DNA from: a virus | Length of the DNA: 27,699 bases | Strand: one strand, 5' to 3' | IMG/VR virus record: IMGVR_UViG_3300025057_000038 | Location: 1-27,699 of that record | In this document: one piece after another, positions 5,643 to 26,069 of the stretch | Position numbering within the stretch: the first letter of the stretch is position 1 | Layout: each line of letters opens with the position of its first letter | Program-made: the position numbers and the translations under genes | Notes under the pieces: generated by a model | Seen by the model: only the letters and a program-made list of their open reading frames with translations | Database searches by the model: none | Told to the model about the DNA's origin: nothing

Positions 5643-7577
5643 CTAAAATAAACTTAATTGTTGAACCACGGGTTCAAGTATTTCTATTTCTTTCTTTATG
5701 TTTTTTAAATAATAATCATAGTTAATATCATATTCTTCAAATGGCTTGTCAACATATGTATTAAATATTGTTTGTAGCCACTTTCCCGCCTCTACTTGTA
5801 TTTCTCTTCTATCATGATTATGAATTTTTAGAATTTTACAACCTTTGTTAGATATATAATATCGTAAAGTTTTTTGTAGAGGTTCGTATGTGTGCTCTTG
5901 GTTTTCTATTGCAGATTTATAAAAGGTCCATGAACCTTTAATTTTAACTCCGGCACAATAATCATAAATATTTGTATTTGTTTTGATGTAATCTTCAGGA
6001 TCAATACCGTAAACAAAATAATTAAAGATAGCTTTAGCAACAACTAAGTGACTTTTGTTTTTGTGTAGATGAGTGTACTTGTGATTCTGTAAATCTTCCC
6101 ACTCAAATCTACCCTTACACTTGGTAGCCCCATTAGTATAAACACTAATATAATTGTTTACGTCCCATATGTACATTGCAGAATAGTCAGCAAATTCTAA
6201 AATTAGCTTTGTCTTTTCTTCCCATGCTTTACATATGTTTTCATACTTTTCTATGTATTGCTTATCAAATTGAAATGTAGCACCATCTGTATTGGTCTGA
6301 AGTAATATTGAATCAGGAATATTAATTAGTATATCTTCTACAAGCATACTAAGTAATAACTGACCATTCATTGTTGTTTGCATAGTATATTGCGGATCAT
6401 ATAGCCAAGAATATTCACTATTACTATTACCATATGAAGCATTAGCTGCTTCTTTAAATCCCTCAATAATTGCCATATCTCTTTGATCTTTTGGTTTTTG
6501 TTTTTCTGCAAGTCTTACATCAACAATATCATTTTTGTAAACTTGAAAAAACTCATCACCAAGATGTGCAGGAGACATGTTATTCATACATGCAATACTA
6601 GGATATAGAGATGCTACATCTAAATCTTTAATAATCAGATTATCATCAGCAACATACTTACCTGGATCTATACATTGATGAATACCGCCAGCACCATAAT
6701 GAAAATCATATCCTTGAAATTTTAAGTTGTATTTAAAATCACTTTTGGTATTGTATATAACTTTGTTTTTTAACTTTTCAAGAAACATTTGAAAAGGTGC
6801 TGTCTGAAATGATATATAATCAAACAGAATATCTTTAACAATAATCCCTGATCTAAACGTCCTGAGTTCTTGAACCTCTCTCTTGTCATTTCCTGTAGCA
6901 TTGCAATATAGTCCTAATAACAATTGAGATCCCAATCTAGTATTAGAATAGTTAAAACAATTGAGACCGTACTTTTCTTTTATGCTTCTTCTAACATTGA
7001 TTAATGGTTTAGATAGATGTAATATCTTCTTAGTAGATTCAACATCATTAATACAATAGTTAGTAATCATATCTATCTCTTCTTGTGTAGCTACTTTTGT
7101 TGAGTGATGTATTGGCATGTCTTGTAGATTTGGCCAATCCATACTAAACTGAGCCCATTTGAGACTAGTTCTTTTATTATTGTTATCCCAGTGATTGATC
7201 TTAAATACATCAATCTGTTCAATTCCTAGTTGCCATTCAGGATAACGAGAAAACTCATTATTATTACTTCTTTCAATTGTCTCTTGTGCAAAATCATAAA
7301 TCAAACTAACAATATCTGACTGATCTTTTTTAATCAATCTTTTACCTTCTCTTAGTAAAAACTCTGTTATTTGAGAATCAAATGATAAACCATTAAAGGA
7401 AATGTGCTTCTCTTTTAAATCTTTGTTTCTATTTAGAAAATCTAGAAGAGGTTTAATATCATTATTTAGAGAAGAATGTATTTTAAAAATCTTTGTTTCT
7501 TCAGAAATATAATCTTGAAACACGGCCACAAATAAATTGGTCATAGTTTCATAATCCATTACCCAATGAGTTCTCAT
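5643..7577 (-). CDS. Family B DNA polymerase with 3'-5' exonuclease and C-terminal beta-clamp motif
   Basis: This 644-residue protein is a complete family B polymerase. The exonuclease motifs are ExoI D8-x-E10 (MDYETM), ExoII N62...D67 (NGLSFD) and ExoIII Y174-x3-D178. The polymerase motifs are A (D320-VASLYPS), B (K375...N379...Y382-G383) and C (TNTDG, D431). In motif C the usual DTD reads NTD; the second Asp, the better established metal ligand, is kept. A KCKG motif follows at ~486-489. The last five residues are QLSLF, the canonical bacterial sliding-clamp binding sequence. The protein is much shorter than T4-type PolB, and I cannot identify the TPR insertions of protein-primed enzymes. 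The stop is TAG; reading it as a stop places QLSLF exactly at the C-terminus. Confidence 0.93.
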   Translation of the reverse strand: MRTHWVMDYETMTNLFVAVFQDYISEETKIFKIHSSLNNDIKPLLDFLNRNKDLKEKHISFNGLSFDSQITEFLLREGKRLIKKDQSDIVSLIYDFAQETIERSNNNEFSRYPEWQLGIEQIDVFKINHWDNNNKRTSLKWAQFSMDWPNLQDMPIHHSTKVATQEEIDMITNYCINDVESTKKILHLSKPLINVRRSIKEKYGLNCFNYSNTRLGSQLLLGLYCNATGNDKREVQELRTFRSGIIVKDILFDYISFQTAPFQMFLEKLKNKVIYNTKSDFKYNLKFQGYDFHYGAGGIHQCIDPGKYVADDNLIIKDLDVASLYPSIACMNNMSPAHLGDEFFQVYKNDIVDVRLAEKQKPKDQRDMAIIEGFKEAANASYGNSNSEYSWLYDPQYTMQTTMNGQLLLSMLVEDILINIPDSILLQTNTDGATFQFDKQYIEKYENICKAWEEKTKLILEFADYSAMYIWDVNNYISVYTNGATKCKGRFEWEDLQNHKYTHLHKNKSHLVVAKAIFNYFVYGIDPEDYIKTNTNIYDYCAGVKIKGSWTFYKSAIENQEHTYEPLQKTLRYYISNKGCKILKIHNHDRREIQVEAGKWLQTIFNTYVDKPFEEYDINYDYYLKNIKKEIEILEPVVQQLSLF

Positions 7578-11385: not shown

Positions 11386-12561
11386 CTACTTAACTGACAT
11401 TTTTATAACGTTCTTATCCATCATCAATTTACTAAATTTAACCTTGTTACCGGCCATTAGCTCTTTGATCATAAAATATCTAAGATCATCAGTAAATGAA
11501 TCACAATCAGTACTAAGTTTAATTAGTCTATCAGTCATTTGCTGAGAAACTGAATTTTCTGTAGCATGTACTAATGAATAATTCACAATACGAGTAGTAA
11601 TAATACTACTTATATCTGCTCTAAAATCATCTCCCGTACCAATTGCATTATTTAAAGCTCCAAGAACATATGCCTCATTAGGATTAGTAACAATATCCTT
11701 TGGAGATATGATTTGATCTAACTTATTATTAATAAACATAGAGAACATTGATGCAAACTCTGGACCTACTGAACCTTCTCCAATCATTTGAATTAAAGGA
11801 AGCTCCTCTTCAAATTTAGGAATAGATTTAATTGAGTTAAAGAATGTTACAATACTTCTAGGATTAGAATTTTCAGTAACCATCTCAGGATTCATAAGTA
11901 AAAAGTTAATACATCTGTTGTCAATACAAGCTTCTTCAGCCCATTTTGCCCATGTATTTACATCAAACTTAGCTTCTACACTAATAAATCTAGTCTTCTG
12001 AGCTACATCAAGACTAGTAACATTATAGTCACCATTGTCTGGATTAGTAGTAAGAACTATATGCCAGTTCTTAGGTAATTTCCATGAGATGTACTCTTGT
12101 CTATCAATAAGCTCCATAGTAGCTTGCATAAATCTATGATCAGCACGAGTATAATCATCTAATATTAGAAAACCACCTTCTCCTCTACCTTGAATCCATT
12201 CAGGTGAGGCATGTGTCATTCGACTTTGTCCAGTTGGTCTATATTTATGTTTGATATAAGTATTCATAAGATTTTCTTGAACCCATGTGACTTTACCGTC
12301 TTCACGTTTCATTTCAAATTCCTTAAATGGAAAACCAACTAAGTCACCTAATTCTTCTAGCTGAGATAAGTTAAGCTTCATTAACTGCATATTCAGTTCA
12401 TCAGCTAACTGGATCAAAGAAGATGTCTTACCAATACCGGCAGGACCTTCAATATTTACAGCAACAGGTATTTTACCTTCTGTTTGTAAGAATTGATTAT
12501 TCTTAACAATGTGTTTTAGAAAAGATTTTAACTCATCAGTGTTTAATTGTACTTGACTCAT
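11386..12561 (-). CDS. MoxR-type AAA+ ATPase
   Basis: This 391-residue protein has Walker A at 39-47 (GPAGIGKTS), Walker B at ~131-136 (FLILDDYTRAD), sensor 1 Asn173 (VLTTNPDNGDYNV) and a KTRF arginine at ~191. The segment MKLNLSQLEELGDLVGFP matches the MoxR/CbbQ-type region that contacts substrate. MoxR ATPases act as ring chaperones that remodel partners, typically with a VWA-domain protein encoded next door; here the VWA/metallopeptidase gene is 10 nt upstream in the same operon. It lacks any N-terminal protease-associated domain. A likely role is ATP-driven remodelling of a phage or host protein complex during replication. The target is unknown. Confidence 0.88.
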   Translation of the reverse strand: MSQVQLNTDELKSFLKHIVKNNQFLQTEGKIPVAVNIEGPAGIGKTSSLIQLADELNMQLMKLNLSQLEELGDLVGFPFKEFEMKREDGKVTWVQENLMNTYIKHKYRPTGQSRMTHASPEWIQGRGEGGFLILDDYTRADHRFMQATMELIDRQEYISWKLPKNWHIVLTTNPDNGDYNVTSLDVAQKTRFISVEAKFDVNTWAKWAEEACIDNRCINFLLMNPEMVTENSNPRSIVTFFNSIKSIPKFEEELPLIQMIGEGSVGPEFASMFSMFINNKLDQIISPKDIVTNPNEAYVLGALNNAIGTGDDFRADISSIITTRIVNYSLVHATENSVSQQMTDRLIKLSTDCDSFTDDLRYFMIKELMAGNKVKFSKLMMDKNVIKMSVK

Positions 12562-12571
12562 TTTTTTTAAT

Positions 12572-13807
12572 TTAAAGTTCTAACTTAATTACTTTACCTG
12601 GTAATTCTTCATTCATTTGTGATCTTTCAGACAGTACCCAAAGTACTCTTGATTTAGGCCTTATACTAGCCCATGCTTCTCCATCTGTAAAATATACCAA
12701 ACTCGTAAATTTTCTAAGATTTTCATTGTAGTATTCAATAACAGGATCAAATTCAGTCCCTCCTCTACCGTGGACTTCAATTTTACCCTTACCATCATAT
12801 TCTTTAATGCTTTTAATTGCAGCATCACACTGTACGATTGTAATATCTACACCAGTTTTATAAATATGATCAATTTCTTGCATAAACTCTCGAAGTTCAT
12901 CATTACTTACAGATCCGGATGTATCAATAGCTAGCAACATGTGCTGTTTCATCTTAATTTTAAGACCTGGATTATCAGAAAACCTACGATTTTCTTTACG
13001 TCTAAGTTTTTTAGTATAAACTTTTGTTGAAGATCCTGTAAATCTTCTTACATAACCTCTCCAATCAAATTTAGGTGGCTCAGTCTTACCAATATTCTCT
13101 ATATAACCACTAATATGACCTGGAATTCTACCTCTTTTCTTTACGGTCATGTCTGCAGTTTCTTTAAGAATATGATCTAACTGCTTGTCAATCATTTTCT
13201 TTTCTGCTTCAGACAGATCTTCAAAATCTTCCCAAGTACCGTGATCATCAAGATTAATTTCTTGATTATCAGTTCCTCCATTTACACTTATTACTGTATT
13301 ATTTTCTCCCTGATTTAGTGCATCACAAACTTTATCAAAGTTTGGACATCCGCAAGTTCCCTTTTCATCATGATCTTCTTTAGCTTGTTTTAGCTTGTCA
13401 TAATAATATCTAGTACCTGCCTTTTTATCAAGGTTTAACTCCGGATAGTTATCTATAAAAATACCATCTTCTGGCAACCAATCTCTTTCTATATATTGAT
13501 TGATTTCCATATCCATTGCAATATTTGCTAGTTTTTTATCTGAATATTTATGGTAATTAGATAAATGAAAAAATGCAATATGTAATAGTTCATGTTTTAG
13601 AATACCCATCTGTTGTATTTCAGTTAGGGAATTCCAAAAATCTTCATTAATAGTTAACTGATAATTGATATTGTTTTTACTAACACCTGCAGTAGGAACT
13701 CTTTTATTATCCCATACTTTATTCAACATTATCAGAAAAAATCCATAAAAGGGTTCTTTAAGCATTAAGGTTTTACTAACCTTTGCTAAAGTTGATTCTT
13801 TACTCAT
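12572..13807 (-). CDS. VWA-like protein with N-terminal metallopeptidase domain (DUF2201-type)
   Basis: This 411-residue, two-part protein has an N-terminal zinc-metallopeptidase-like motif, KHELLHIAFFH (H72-E73-x2-H76, with a further H81), followed by NIAMDMEIN, which resembles the third-ligand region of DUF2201 proteins. The C-terminal VWA domain keeps a full MIDAS: D295-T-S-G-S299, T351 (GRGGTEFDP) and D375 (YFTDGE). Between them is a Cys-rich patch (TCGCPNFDKVC) and a basic stretch (KKLRRKENRR). DUF2201 proteins are commonly encoded beside MoxR ATPases, as here. The VWA domain would recruit the partner and the peptidase-like domain might process it, but proteolysis has not been shown for this family as far as I know. 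Its start overlaps the upstream 136-residue gene by 8 nt. Confidence 0.85.
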   Translation of the reverse strand: MSKESTLAKVSKTLMLKEPFYGFFLIMLNKVWDNKRVPTAGVSKNNINYQLTINEDFWNSLTEIQQMGILKHELLHIAFFHLSNYHKYSDKKLANIAMDMEINQYIERDWLPEDGIFIDNYPELNLDKKAGTRYYYDKLKQAKEDHDEKGTCGCPNFDKVCDALNQGENNTVISVNGGTDNQEINLDDHGTWEDFEDLSEAEKKMIDKQLDHILKETADMTVKKRGRIPGHISGYIENIGKTEPPKFDWRGYVRRFTGSSTKVYTKKLRRKENRRFSDNPGLKIKMKQHMLLAIDTSGSVSNDELREFMQEIDHIYKTGVDITIVQCDAAIKSIKEYDGKGKIEVHGRGGTEFDPVIEYYNENLRKFTSLVYFTDGEAWASIRPKSRVLWVLSERSQMNEELPGKVIKLEL

Positions 13808-20191: not shown

Positions 20192-20503
20192 ATGATTAAG
20201 ATGAAAGAATTAAAAGATGATGTTGTACTTGAAATAAAAGTAAACAAAGCATATTATAACATGCTAAAAGCATCATTACTTTATGTATTCAATCTAGAGG
20301 AAGATGATGCTAAAAGACAAGAATCTGCAAAAAATGCAATGTCTAAAGAGTACAAAGATCTTACTGACTATGAAAGAACATTTAGAACAATCACTCTTGC
20401 TATTGCTGAAATAGAAAATGTTGCTACTAAAAATGATCTTTTTGAGGTTTTAGAAATTAAAGAACCTGGTGATAAAGACTATATTCCACCTACTCAAGAT
20501 TAA
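20192..20503 (+). CDS. Unknown small protein, 103 aa, plus strand
   Basis: The ATG at 20192 (MIKMKELKDD) or 20201 is the likely start, just after a -7-like box. The product is helical and charged (LEIKVNKAYYNMLKASLLYV, LTDYERTFRTITLAIAEIE), ending with the acidic/proline segment EPGDKDYIPPTQD. There are no catalytic, zinc or membrane motifs. Its 3' end overlaps the convergent minus-strand gene at 20490 by 14 nt. It is one of three plus-strand genes in a window otherwise on the minus strand, so it may be a differently timed gene. The function is unknown. Confidence 0.6.
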   Translation: MIKMKELKDDVVLEIKVNKAYYNMLKASLLYVFNLEEDDAKRQESAKNAMSKEYKDLTDYERTFRTITLAIAEIENVATKNDLFEVLEIKEPGDKDYIPPTQD

Positions 20504-20858
20504 TATTTAAGTCTCTACCAAGATCAATACAAACATCAATTATAAAAGCCATTTCTTCTTTAGTACAATCAGCAAATGATCTAAAATCATTTTCTTCTGT
20601 GGTCATAATATTAGACTCAGCTTTTACGATATTTTTCATTTCTTCAAAACTGTGACCTGTTTCCTTAGCAATCTGTCTAATACAAGCATGTATTTTAGAC
20701 ATTTGAGCATAAGAAGCATTATTTAAGACAGGATTCATAAAGACTTCTACTTCAGATCCTTCTTTAATTTTATCTAAAAAGATATTGTATTTTACTTTAT
20801 CTTGCTCATTAATATAAACAAGCTTTCCGTTTTTCTTTTTAAACTTAGCAGTAAACAT
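20490..20858 (-). CDS. NinB/Orf-like recombination mediator (tentative)
   Basis: This 122-residue protein has an N-terminal strand pair (MFTAKFKKKNGKLVYI) followed by EVEVFMNPVLNNASYAQMSK, then helices (IHACIRQIAKETGHSFEEM, then MKNIVKAES), ending with SFADCTKEEMAFIIDVCIDL. The pattern S-x2-Q-x3-IHxxIxxIAxxxG...EEMKxxVK...S-xxDC-x-EEM resembles NinB/Orf-type proteins, which help load annealases or recombinases on single strands in lambda-like recombination. A place close to UNG and the Sak4/SSB block fits. The match is by pattern, not by a unique motif. It converges with the plus-strand gene at 20192-20503. Confidence 0.5.
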   Translation of the reverse strand: MFTAKFKKKNGKLVYINEQDKVKYNIFLDKIKEGSEVEVFMNPVLNNASYAQMSKIHACIRQIAKETGHSFEEMKNIVKAESNIMTTEENDFRSFADCTKEEMAFIIDVCIDLGRDLNINLE

Positions 20859-23600: not shown

Positions 23601-23729
23601 TTAGTTTAAAATATTATAACACATTAAGAATAGTTTTTGAAAAAACCATAACCAAAATAGCCATGCAAATAGTCCACGGAATCTAACTTCATTCAAATTC
23701 CAATTAAATTTATGTTTAATCTTTTTCAT
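23601..23729 (-). CDS. Small membrane-type protein, 42 aa (gene chain member 6)
   Basis: The protein is MKKIKHKFNWNLNEVRFRGL, followed by a strongly hydrophobic and aromatic run (FAWLFWLWFFQKLFLMCY) long enough to cross a membrane. The N-terminus is basic, so it would face the cytoplasm. The start is preceded by the second leader family (TAG-TT-ATG type, AAAACTTTTAGTTATG). Its TAA stop lies in the last leader copy of the 19-nt family. It is the first translated gene after the structured, gene-free region. The function is unknown. Confidence 0.55.
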   Translation of the reverse strand: MKKIKHKFNWNLNEVRFRGLFAWLFWLWFFQKLFLMCYNILN

Positions 23730-23754
23730 AACTAAAAGTTTTCTTTAATAAATT

Positions 23755-24070
23755 TAAGTAGTGTTAAGTCAGAGCAGGTTTCTGCATATTCTTTTTTTCC
23801 ATAAGAATAAGCCACACTAACTGGTTAACTTAACACTGTGTATTAGGCTCTCTGTCTTCTCTATTACCAAGAAGATCTCATACACTTTGCTCCTTCAGTC
23901 ACCATTGGGTTGCCCATCTGTCTCCACGCTTAACAAGAAAATTCACTTATTTGGTAAGTCCTACCATAATAAGCCACTTCTACTACGCTTCCCAGACCTT
24001 AACATGACATTGCCATCCCGAAGGCCACACTTAAATACTTTTTACAATTTACCCGTTTTGGTAAATACTA
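23755..24070 (-). ncRNA. Candidate structured non-coding RNA in the only large gene-free stretch (23730-24127)
   Basis: This is the one stretch over 300 nt without a credible gene. It is visibly richer in G+C than its surroundings and G-rich on the minus strand, the strand of its neighbours. Hairpins seen: ATTTACC/GGTAAAT (24047-24066); an 11-bp stem CTTATT-TGGTA with TACCA-AATAAG and one bulge (23946-23973); TCTTCT/AGAAGA (23855-23875); and a 3' domain with a perfect 10-bp closing stem AGTGTTAAGT/ACTTAACACT (23760-23769 with 23828-23837) around two inner hairpins (GCAG/CTGC at 23774-23785; TATTCTT/AAGAATA at 23787-23809). GTGGCTTATT occurs twice. I see no tRNA, tmRNA, RNase P or group I intron core. 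The class is unknown. Confidence 0.6.
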
Positions 24071-24077
24071 TTTTACA

Positions 24078-24129
24078 TTATATGCTTTTGCATTGAATAG
24101 TGCAGTTAAGTACACTTTTATATGCTTTT
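24078..24129 (-). repeat. 12-bp direct repeat upstream of the RNA candidate
   Basis: TTATATGCTTTT (plus strand) occurs exactly twice, at 24078-24089 and 24118-24129, 40 bp apart. It lies between the stop of the 88-residue membrane gene and the first hairpin of the RNA candidate, where the promoter of that RNA would be expected. A repeated operator or promoter element is possible. Confidence 0.55.
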
Positions 24130-24394
24130 ACATATTAGGAAACATATCTTCTAGTTTTTTTTCTACTTTATCATCTCCAAACATCATAGCTACCAATCCT
24201 AAACATAGAATACTCAGTATTACCATCATTAATACCATGATCATACCACCAGCAAGTCCCAGTAAAAATGCTCCTACTGATTCAGATTCTAAGAGTTTCA
24301 TTGCTCCCCATCCTATACCATAAAGCACTGCAAGGTTGCAGCAAAACCAGGTTAAATAACCCATTCCTAATAATATCTTCTTTAACTTCTCCAT
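24128..24394 (-). CDS. Two-helix membrane protein, 88 aa
   Basis: Two strongly hydrophobic helices are visible: LTWFCCNLAVLYGIGWGAM and a longer one (LLGLAGGMIMVLMMVILSI, continuing LCLGLVAMMF), joined by a short loop with ESESVG. The N-terminus is basic (MEKLKKIL) and the C-terminus charged (DDKVEKKLEDMF), so both ends are probably inside. It starts through the TAG-TT-ATG junction after the 107-residue gene, and the gene-free RNA region follows its stop. Holin, superinfection exclusion or other membrane roles are possible; none is shown. Confidence 0.7.
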   Translation of the reverse strand: MEKLKKILLGMGYLTWFCCNLAVLYGIGWGAMKLLESESVGAFLLGLAGGMIMVLMMVILSILCLGLVAMMFGDDKVEKKLEDMFPNM

Positions 24395-24877: not shown

Positions 24878-25759
24878 TCAAAATATGTAACGTATTGTAT
24901 TCCAAGGTATGATCTTATCATGTAATTTGATAAATTCCTTTATCCATACCTTCTTAAGATTTCTTTTGTAACGAAGATTTTCTCCTCCATATTGAGAGGT
25001 CTTTGTTTCTTGAACATCAGGATTCCATATTAAATGTTCTCCACTAACACCGTTTTCTAAGTTCCACTCATGCTTTTTTATATTATGAGTTAGAAAAATT
25101 ACTTCTGCCTGAACTTGATTTTTGTAAGCATCTGACACACTATAATTTAGTAGTCTAAATAACTTATCATATTCATCTAGCCATCCATCTTTTACAATAA
25201 CAGGGCTAAAATTAACATGTATATCATACCCAGCATATATAAAATCATTAATTGCTTCTATTCTTTTATAAATAGCAGGTGTGTTAGGCTCTAATTCTTT
25301 TCTATATATTTCTGGCATAAGACTGAACCTTATACGAACTTTTTCTTTCGGGTTAAACTTCAGGAAAGCCTTCGGGATAACTTTTGTAGCTAGTGTAGCT
25401 TTTGCAATAGGGTGATCAACAAAGAATTGAAATATCTTTTCCCAATCATAATACTTATGATGTAAAGCAAAGTCTTCATTACAAGATATATCATAAGTCA
25501 CAAACTCTGGATCAGTTTGATTTGGTTTTTCTACATCTGCATAGAAATATGCATGCTCATTAACAGCAGTGAGCACATCCCCAATATTTTTTGGTACATC
25601 TAGACCAGTGGGTTTATGCCTTTTCATATAACAGTAACTGCAATTTAAGAGACACCCATAACCAAAAGAAGGAGCAATGTAATCACTACTCCTTCCCGAC
25701 TCTCTAATCTTAAATGTTTTTCTAGTAATCTGCTTTACTAAATTATTCTTCTTCATCAT
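24878..25759 (-). CDS. Radical SAM protein of the spore photoproduct lyase family
   Basis: The start is taken at 25759 (MMKKNNLVKQITRKTF), which overlaps the previous gene by 17 nt; the upstream frame would run inside that gene. In the 293-residue product the iron-sulphur motif is C36-x3-C40-x2-C43 (SFGYGCLLNCSYCYMKRHKP), with SFGYGC and the YM-x-R-H-K pattern typical of SPL-like enzymes. Later parts (VTYDISCNEDFALHH, LATKVIPKAF, IRFSLMPEIYRK) fit the rest of the TIM-barrel core. SPL reverses UV-made thymine dimers in spores; phage members may repair UV damage in phage DNA. The substrate here is not proven. Confidence 0.85.
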   Translation of the reverse strand: MMKKNNLVKQITRKTFKIRESGRSSDYIAPSFGYGCLLNCSYCYMKRHKPTGLDVPKNIGDVLTAVNEHAYFYADVEKPNQTDPEFVTYDISCNEDFALHHKYYDWEKIFQFFVDHPIAKATLATKVIPKAFLKFNPKEKVRIRFSLMPEIYRKELEPNTPAIYKRIEAINDFIYAGYDIHVNFSPVIVKDGWLDEYDKLFRLLNYSVSDAYKNQVQAEVIFLTHNIKKHEWNLENGVSGEHLIWNPDVQETKTSQYGGENLRYKRNLKKVWIKEFIKLHDKIIPWNTIRYIF

Positions 25760-26069
25760 GTACTCTACATCCGTATTCTCCTGGTTGTGATTCCCATTCA
25801 CACCCTCTACCTTTTGCATCTGTACAAAAGAAAAATTCATAATCTCCATTATCATCTAATACGGTATCATCTGATCCACATTTAGGGCATTTTGGAAAAG
25901 CTTCTGAGTTCTCAAAAAACTCTTGCATTTTTTCTAAAAATACATCCATAATTAGTTTTTTTGTTTTTATTAAAGCATCTAAATATCCTGCTGAGTATTC
26001 ATCAGCATTACTAAATTTTTCAGCTTTGTTTATTTGAATTTGTAATAATCTGATTATTTTTTTAATCAT
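25743..26069 (-). CDS. Small protein with C-terminal zinc ribbon, 108 aa
   Basis: The start is taken at the ATG at 26069, which overlaps the upstream stop as ATGATTAA; a TTG two codons earlier is possible. The N-terminal half is helical (IIRLLQIQINKAEKFSNADE, GYLDALIKTKKLIMDVF). A C-terminal zinc ribbon carries CPKCGSDD and FFCTDAKGRGCEW, giving four cysteines in a C-x2-C...C-x7-C pattern. The tail is acidic (HDEEE). It ends inside the radical SAM gene. It may act as a nucleic-acid or transcription-related adaptor; the function is unknown. Confidence 0.65.
   Translation of the reverse strand: MIKKIIRLLQIQINKAEKFSNADEYSAGYLDALIKTKKLIMDVFLEKMQEFFENSEAFPKCPKCGSDDTVLDDNGDYEFFFCTDAKGRGCEWESQPGEYGCRVHDEEE

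What the first reader, a model, noticed from the sequence alone, without database searches (positions are those of the whole stretch)
23730..24127. Structured RNA candidate in the only large gene-free stretch
In a window with almost no intergenic DNA, ~400 nt lack a credible gene, have higher G+C than their surroundings, and carry several perfect or near-perfect stems: an 11-bp stem with one bulge (23946-23973), a 10-bp stem closing a two-hairpin domain (23760-23837), a 7-bp hairpin (24047-24066), and a 6-bp hairpin (23855-23875). No tRNA, tmRNA, RNase P or group I intron features were recognised, so it may be an undescribed phage RNA.
Basis: partly seen in the sequence, partly recalled or inferred. 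Interest (0 to 1): 0.85.

Follow-up and report, generated by a model that had tools for sequence, protein, structure and literature searches.

The report
Near-invariant structured RNA in crAss-like phage
A gap between genes in a crAss-like phage holds about 300 bases that fold like a complex RNA and are 98.7% identical in a distant relative whose genes have drifted far apart, so it is probably a functional non-coding RNA that matches no known family.

Summary
The gap is real. It is the longest coding-free stretch of the record and the G+C maximum at 150-250 nt, and Rfam and tRNA/tmRNA searches find nothing. Taken alone, its stems are only mildly better than chance (z -1.6 on the minus strand). 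The decisive evidence is a second copy in a 47.5-kb IMG/VR contig (IMGVR_UViG_3300025057_000010, here G023), at the same place between the SPL-like gene and the gene matching 20490-20858. Window 23739-24047 is 98.7% identical there (4 substitutions in 309 nt, no indels). The abutting 88-aa gene is 84% identical (dS 0.44), and other shared genes are 48-81% identical with near-saturated synonymous sites. All four substitutions fall on unpaired positions of the minus-strand fold; one completes a 10-bp stem, and the copy folds better (z -3.2). No minus-strand frame codes. Best reading: a ~285-310-nt structured RNA built on a four-helix junction, probably made from the minus-strand small-gene operon, with no Rfam family. 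Covariation is untestable with two near-identical sequences, and recent recombination of this tract is not excluded. Function and mechanism are inferred.

The parts
23739..24047 (-). Conserved core of the proposed non-coding RNA (309 nt)
   Evidence: 98.7% identical to G023:13124-13432, no indels; G+C maximum of the record; no coding frame on the minus strand
23752..24036 (-). Closed structural domain, helix P1: 24029-24036 pairs with 23752-23759
   Evidence: Base-pair probability 0.81; all pairs kept in both copies
23892..24024 (-). P2 domain: 24018-24024 with 23892-23898; its arm carries the bulged hairpin 23945-23974
23838..23885 (-). P3: 23880-23885 with 23838-23843; the inner hairpin 23855-23875 is less certain (refolds in G023)
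23760..23837 (-). P4: 12-bp helix 23826-23837 with 23760-23771, inner stem 23803-23812 with 23784-23793, a perfect 10 bp in G023
   Evidence: local z about -3.3
24128..24394 (-). Upstream 88-aa gene, hydrophobic, no family; present directly upstream of the RNA in both phages
   Evidence: 77% aa, 84% nt identity to G023, dS 0.44
24048..24127 (-). Variable 5' flank: hairpin 24047-24066 broken in G023; a stretch of about 55 nt with two ATGYAAAAGCATATAA copies is absent there
23601..23729 (-). Downstream 42-aa ORF; starts 22 nt after P1 ends; its leader and sequence differ in G023
   Evidence: no significant similarity to the G023 35-aa ORF

Best explanation
Window 23739-24047 encodes, on the minus strand, a structured non-coding RNA of about 285-310 nt. 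It would be made as part of the small-gene operon transcript and held as one domain by helix P1, with a P2-P3-P4 junction. Most likely it acts in trans as a stable folded RNA, binding a phage or host protein or ribonucleoprotein during infection. SHOWN: no coding frame on the minus strand, the G+C peak, the shared site in two phages, 98.7% identity, all four changes at unpaired positions of the predicted fold, no Rfam match. INFERRED: transcription from the minus strand (from operon direction and from the substitutions fitting that strand's fold), release as a separate RNA, action in trans, and the partner, which is unknown.
For: Second copy at the same site in G023 with 4 substitutions in 309 nt, against dS 0.44 and dN 0.13 in the abutting gene and dS about 0.9-1.6 elsewhere. 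P of 4 or fewer changes at the neighbour's synonymous rate 7e-48, at its non-synonymous rate 3e-12. All four changes unpaired (about 1.6% by chance) and the MFE falls by 5.5 kcal/mol, reached by 1.7% of random 4-substitution sets. G023 copy z -3.2. Highest G+C of the record. On the plus-strand fold two of the four changes hit paired positions.
Against: No covariation is measurable. Window-copy folding z is only -1.6. No promoter or terminator stands out. No expression data. A 95%-identical patch inside the DNA polymerase gene shows that parts of these genomes are unusually similar, possibly by exchange, so some of the identity may reflect recent recombination. Only two members found.
Confidence: 0.5

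Rival explanations
1. A cis-acting structured leader or junction RNA: the fold controls expression (attenuation, processing or translation) of the downstream run of small genes.
For: P1 ends 22 nt before the next ATG. In both phages the RNA sits between upstream genes that begin with the leader AAAGAAAACTTxTAGTTATG and downstream genes that mostly begin with AAACCAAAACAAAGATG.
Against: The first downstream ORF and its leader differ between the phages, and the ORFs have no significant similarity. Loops as well as stems are near-invariant, more than a simple leader needs. No complementarity between RNA and leaders beyond chance.
Confidence: 0.25
2. A DNA-level element (replication origin, packaging or recombination site) whose inverted repeats act as DNA.
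For: Non-coding, highly conserved, with inverted repeats that can form on either strand.
Against: G+C-rich rather than AT-rich, no iteron array, 300 nt near-invariant. The four changes spare pairs on the minus-strand fold but not on the plus-strand fold.
Confidence: 0.1
3. A recently exchanged segment: the identity reflects recombination between co-occurring phages (or a chimeric assembly) rather than constraint on an RNA.
For: A patch inside the polymerase gene is also 95% identical. The 88-aa gene has lower dS than the rest, so this part has been exchanged more recently.
Against: High identity starts and stops at the edges of the predicted RNA. The changes fall only in unpaired positions. 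A non-coding filler of 300 nt would be costly in so dense a genome.
Confidence: 0.13
4. A protein gene missed by the ORF call.
For: A plus-strand ORF of 69 aa (23887-24096) stays open in G023 (86 aa).
Against: TTG start, antisense to the operon; covers only part of the conserved block; its one substitution is non-synonymous; no relatives; all minus-strand frames closed.
Confidence: 0.02

Closest known systems
GOLLD and ROOL RNAs (ornate phage/prophage RNAs; PMC12286853)
   Same: Phage-encoded, non-coding, multi-helix, function unknown
   Different: GOLLD often exceeds 800 nt and the studied ROOL is 659 nt; both often lie near tRNA islands. Here about 300 nt, no tRNA in the record, no Rfam match
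Group I/II introns, DGR and retron RNAs
   Same: Compact multi-helix RNA found in phages
   Different: Not inside a gene, no Rfam match, no reverse transcriptase in the window record or in G023
Structured 5' leaders (riboswitch-like, attenuators)
   Same: Sits in an operon just upstream of a start codon
   Different: No known riboswitch match; the downstream gene is not conserved

Membership tests
Any Rfam 15 family (incl. GOLLD, ROOL, HEARO, group I/II intron, tmRNA, RNase P, 6S) | Covariance-model match at the gathering score | tested here: not met
   None at gathering; nothing plausible at E up to 10 for either copy
tRNA / tmRNA | ARAGORN match | tested here: not met
   0 genes
GOLLD / ROOL | Length above about 600 nt and proximity to tRNA genes | tested here: not met
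   Core 309 nt; no tRNA in the record; family properties from PMC12286853
Retron / DGR RNA | Reverse transcriptase gene in the same phage | tested here: inconclusive
   No PF00078 match in either record, but both records may be partial genomes
Structured non-coding RNA (general) | Covarying base pairs across relatives | tested here: inconclusive
   Two sequences, no varying pair except one gained
Structured non-coding RNA (general) | Conserved without coding capacity, changes avoid paired positions | tested here: met
Structured non-coding RNA (general) | Transcript detected | not testable with these tools
   No RNA-seq available

The most novel reading that the evidence does not exclude
The founding member of a new RNA class of crAss-like phages: a ~300-nt RNA under nearly base-by-base constraint (slower than the amino-acid-changing sites of its neighbour gene), with a four-helix junction in which P3, P4 and P1 abut, serving in trans in host takeover or as a structural RNA or ribonucleoprotein core.
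Probability: 0.35. Interest if true: 0.65.

Novelty: new member of a known kind. Interest (0 to 1): 0.5.

Why it matters
I found no described structured RNA for this group of phages; the literature searched was open-access only. A ~300-nt RNA that changes more slowly than the protein-coding positions around it would be a rare phage molecule with strict sequence demands, such as a catalytic RNA, an RNP scaffold or a takeover RNA. Two copies with four differences give a ready construct for probing, pull-down and deletion tests.

Tried and rejected
Rfam at gathering and relaxed thresholds, ARAGORN: nothing. Gaps of about 400 nt next to SPL genes in relatives proved to be protein-coding when read. 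A 19-mer hit in L143 and five of the six 16-mer hits were chance matches. Eighty loci from a 14-mer scan held no homolog. Two genome-contig scans: none, then ten chance matches. A weak collinear-looking hit in L010 lies in coding sequence. Covariance model R1 over 1.19 Mb of related phage DNA finds only the two copies. Pairing of the RNA with the gene leaders, suggested by internal repeats, is weaker than for random windows. Loop-loop pseudoknots: no candidate of 5 bp or more with 2 G-C pairs. Homology of the downstream small ORFs: not significant. Phage and plasmid records: no convincing match. One script timed out and was rerun smaller; a first listing of substitutions was off by one base and was redone.

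Full report
CONTEXT. The window is a complete 27,699-bp IMG/VR virus record. Its DnaB-like helicase matches human-gut crAss phages at about 30% amino-acid identity. The right half is a dense run of small minus-strand genes.

THE OBSERVATION. 23730-24127 is the longest gene-free stretch. All minus-strand frames are closed; the plus strand offers only a TTG-started 69-aa ORF without relatives. It holds the G+C maximum of the record at 150-250 nt, a recognised sign of structured RNA in AT-rich genomes (general knowledge). The stems exist, but their number is ordinary for this genome and the fold of the whole stretch is only mildly better than shuffles (z -1.6 minus, -2.2 plus). The sequence alone therefore left the case open.

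SEARCH FOR RELATIVES. Neighbouring proteins led to about 150 related loci, none with the element (checked). A 16-mer from the P2-P3 junction then found contig IMGVR_UViG_3300025057_000010, handled here as G023. It holds a full copy of the core at 13124-13432.

THE COMPARISON. In G023 the copy lies, as in the window, directly after the same 88-aa gene, between the SPL-like gene and the homolog of 20490-20858. The two phages are distant: the other aligned genes share 48-81% of nucleotides and their synonymous sites are near saturation (dS about 0.9-1.6); the 88-aa gene shares 84% (dS 0.44). The RNA core 23739-24047 shares 98.7%, with four substitutions and no indel. At the 88-aa gene's synonymous rate this has P 7e-48, and at its non-synonymous rate 3e-12. 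Identity falls away at both ends: upstream at about 24035-24048 (a broken hairpin, then a difference of about 55 nt) and downstream at 23739. Part of the identity may stem from recent exchange: the polymerase gene also has a patch of 95% identity. That the tract limits coincide with the fold argues that the RNA unit is what is kept.

STRUCTURE. Both copies give the same minus-strand architecture. P1 closes the domain (24029-24036 with 23752-23759). P2 (24018-24024 with 23892-23898) carries a long arm with the bulged hairpin 23945-23974. P3 (23880-23885 with 23838-23843) and P4 (23826-23837 with 23760-23771) abut each other, and P4 abuts P1, without linkers. The four changes (minus-strand letters: 24025 G>A, 23853 A>G, 23824 C>T, 23786 T>A) are all at positions unpaired in the window fold; 65% of the domain is paired, so about 1.6% by chance. 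The last turns a U-U mismatch into a U-A pair, giving a perfect 10-bp inner P4 stem. Stabilisation this large occurs in 1.7% of random 4-substitution sets. G023 has z -3.2. In the plus-strand fold two of the four changes hit paired positions. No covariation can be scored with two such similar sequences, and the two tests above are not independent of each other.

WHAT IT IS. The best reading is a structured non-coding RNA of about 300 nt from the minus-strand operon. Transcription, release and action in trans are inferred. A cis-acting leader for the downstream genes is the main rival: P1 ends 22 nt before an ATG, but the downstream ORF and its leader differ between the phages. A DNA-level site and a recently exchanged tract remain possible.

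KNOWN FAMILIES. No Rfam family matches. It resembles in kind, but is not a member of, the ornate phage RNAs GOLLD and ROOL, which are about two to three times longer and often near tRNA islands (PMC12286853). No reverse transcriptase is present in either record. No paper found in the searches describes structured RNAs of this phage group; the library is open-access only.

VERDICT. It is a new orphan RNA of a known kind; its function is unknown beyond inference.

Noticed in passing
window starts 22960, 23108, 23238, 23588; L029 4805-5240; L031 9838-10351; L155/L160: Many small genes begin with the same leader, TTTAAACCAAAACAAAGATG, overlapping the end (NQNKDE) of the gene before. In relatives L029 and L031 the same leader joins some of the same small genes in a different order, suggesting a cassette array shuffled at a repeated junction.
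   Followed up: partly
window starts 23729, 24394, 24720; G023 12007-12832: A second repeated leader, AAAGAAAACTTxTAGTTATG, often overlapping the end (KENL) of the preceding gene. In both phages it is used upstream of the RNA, while the first leader is used downstream; in G023 the leader just after the RNA looks like a hybrid of the two.
   Followed up: partly
window 24070-24133: Two copies of ATGYAAAAGCATATAA 40 nt apart on the minus strand, just upstream of the RNA core; found nowhere else in the record without mismatches and absent from G023.
   Followed up: partly
L029 4687-4800: A non-coding, foldable stretch of about 114 nt directly after the SPL-like gene and before the leader array; unrelated in sequence to the RNA here and without relatives among the fetched loci.
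   Followed up: partly
window 6365-6655: A patch of the DNA polymerase gene is up to 95% identical to G023, while the rest of the gene is lower with third positions at about 50-78%; possibly a recent exchange.
   Followed up: partly
window 24878-25855: SPL-like (spore photoproduct lyase family, PF20903) protein: over 500 IMG/VR stretches encode a relative, up to 68% identical, yet none was found in the annotated phage records searched.
   Followed up: no
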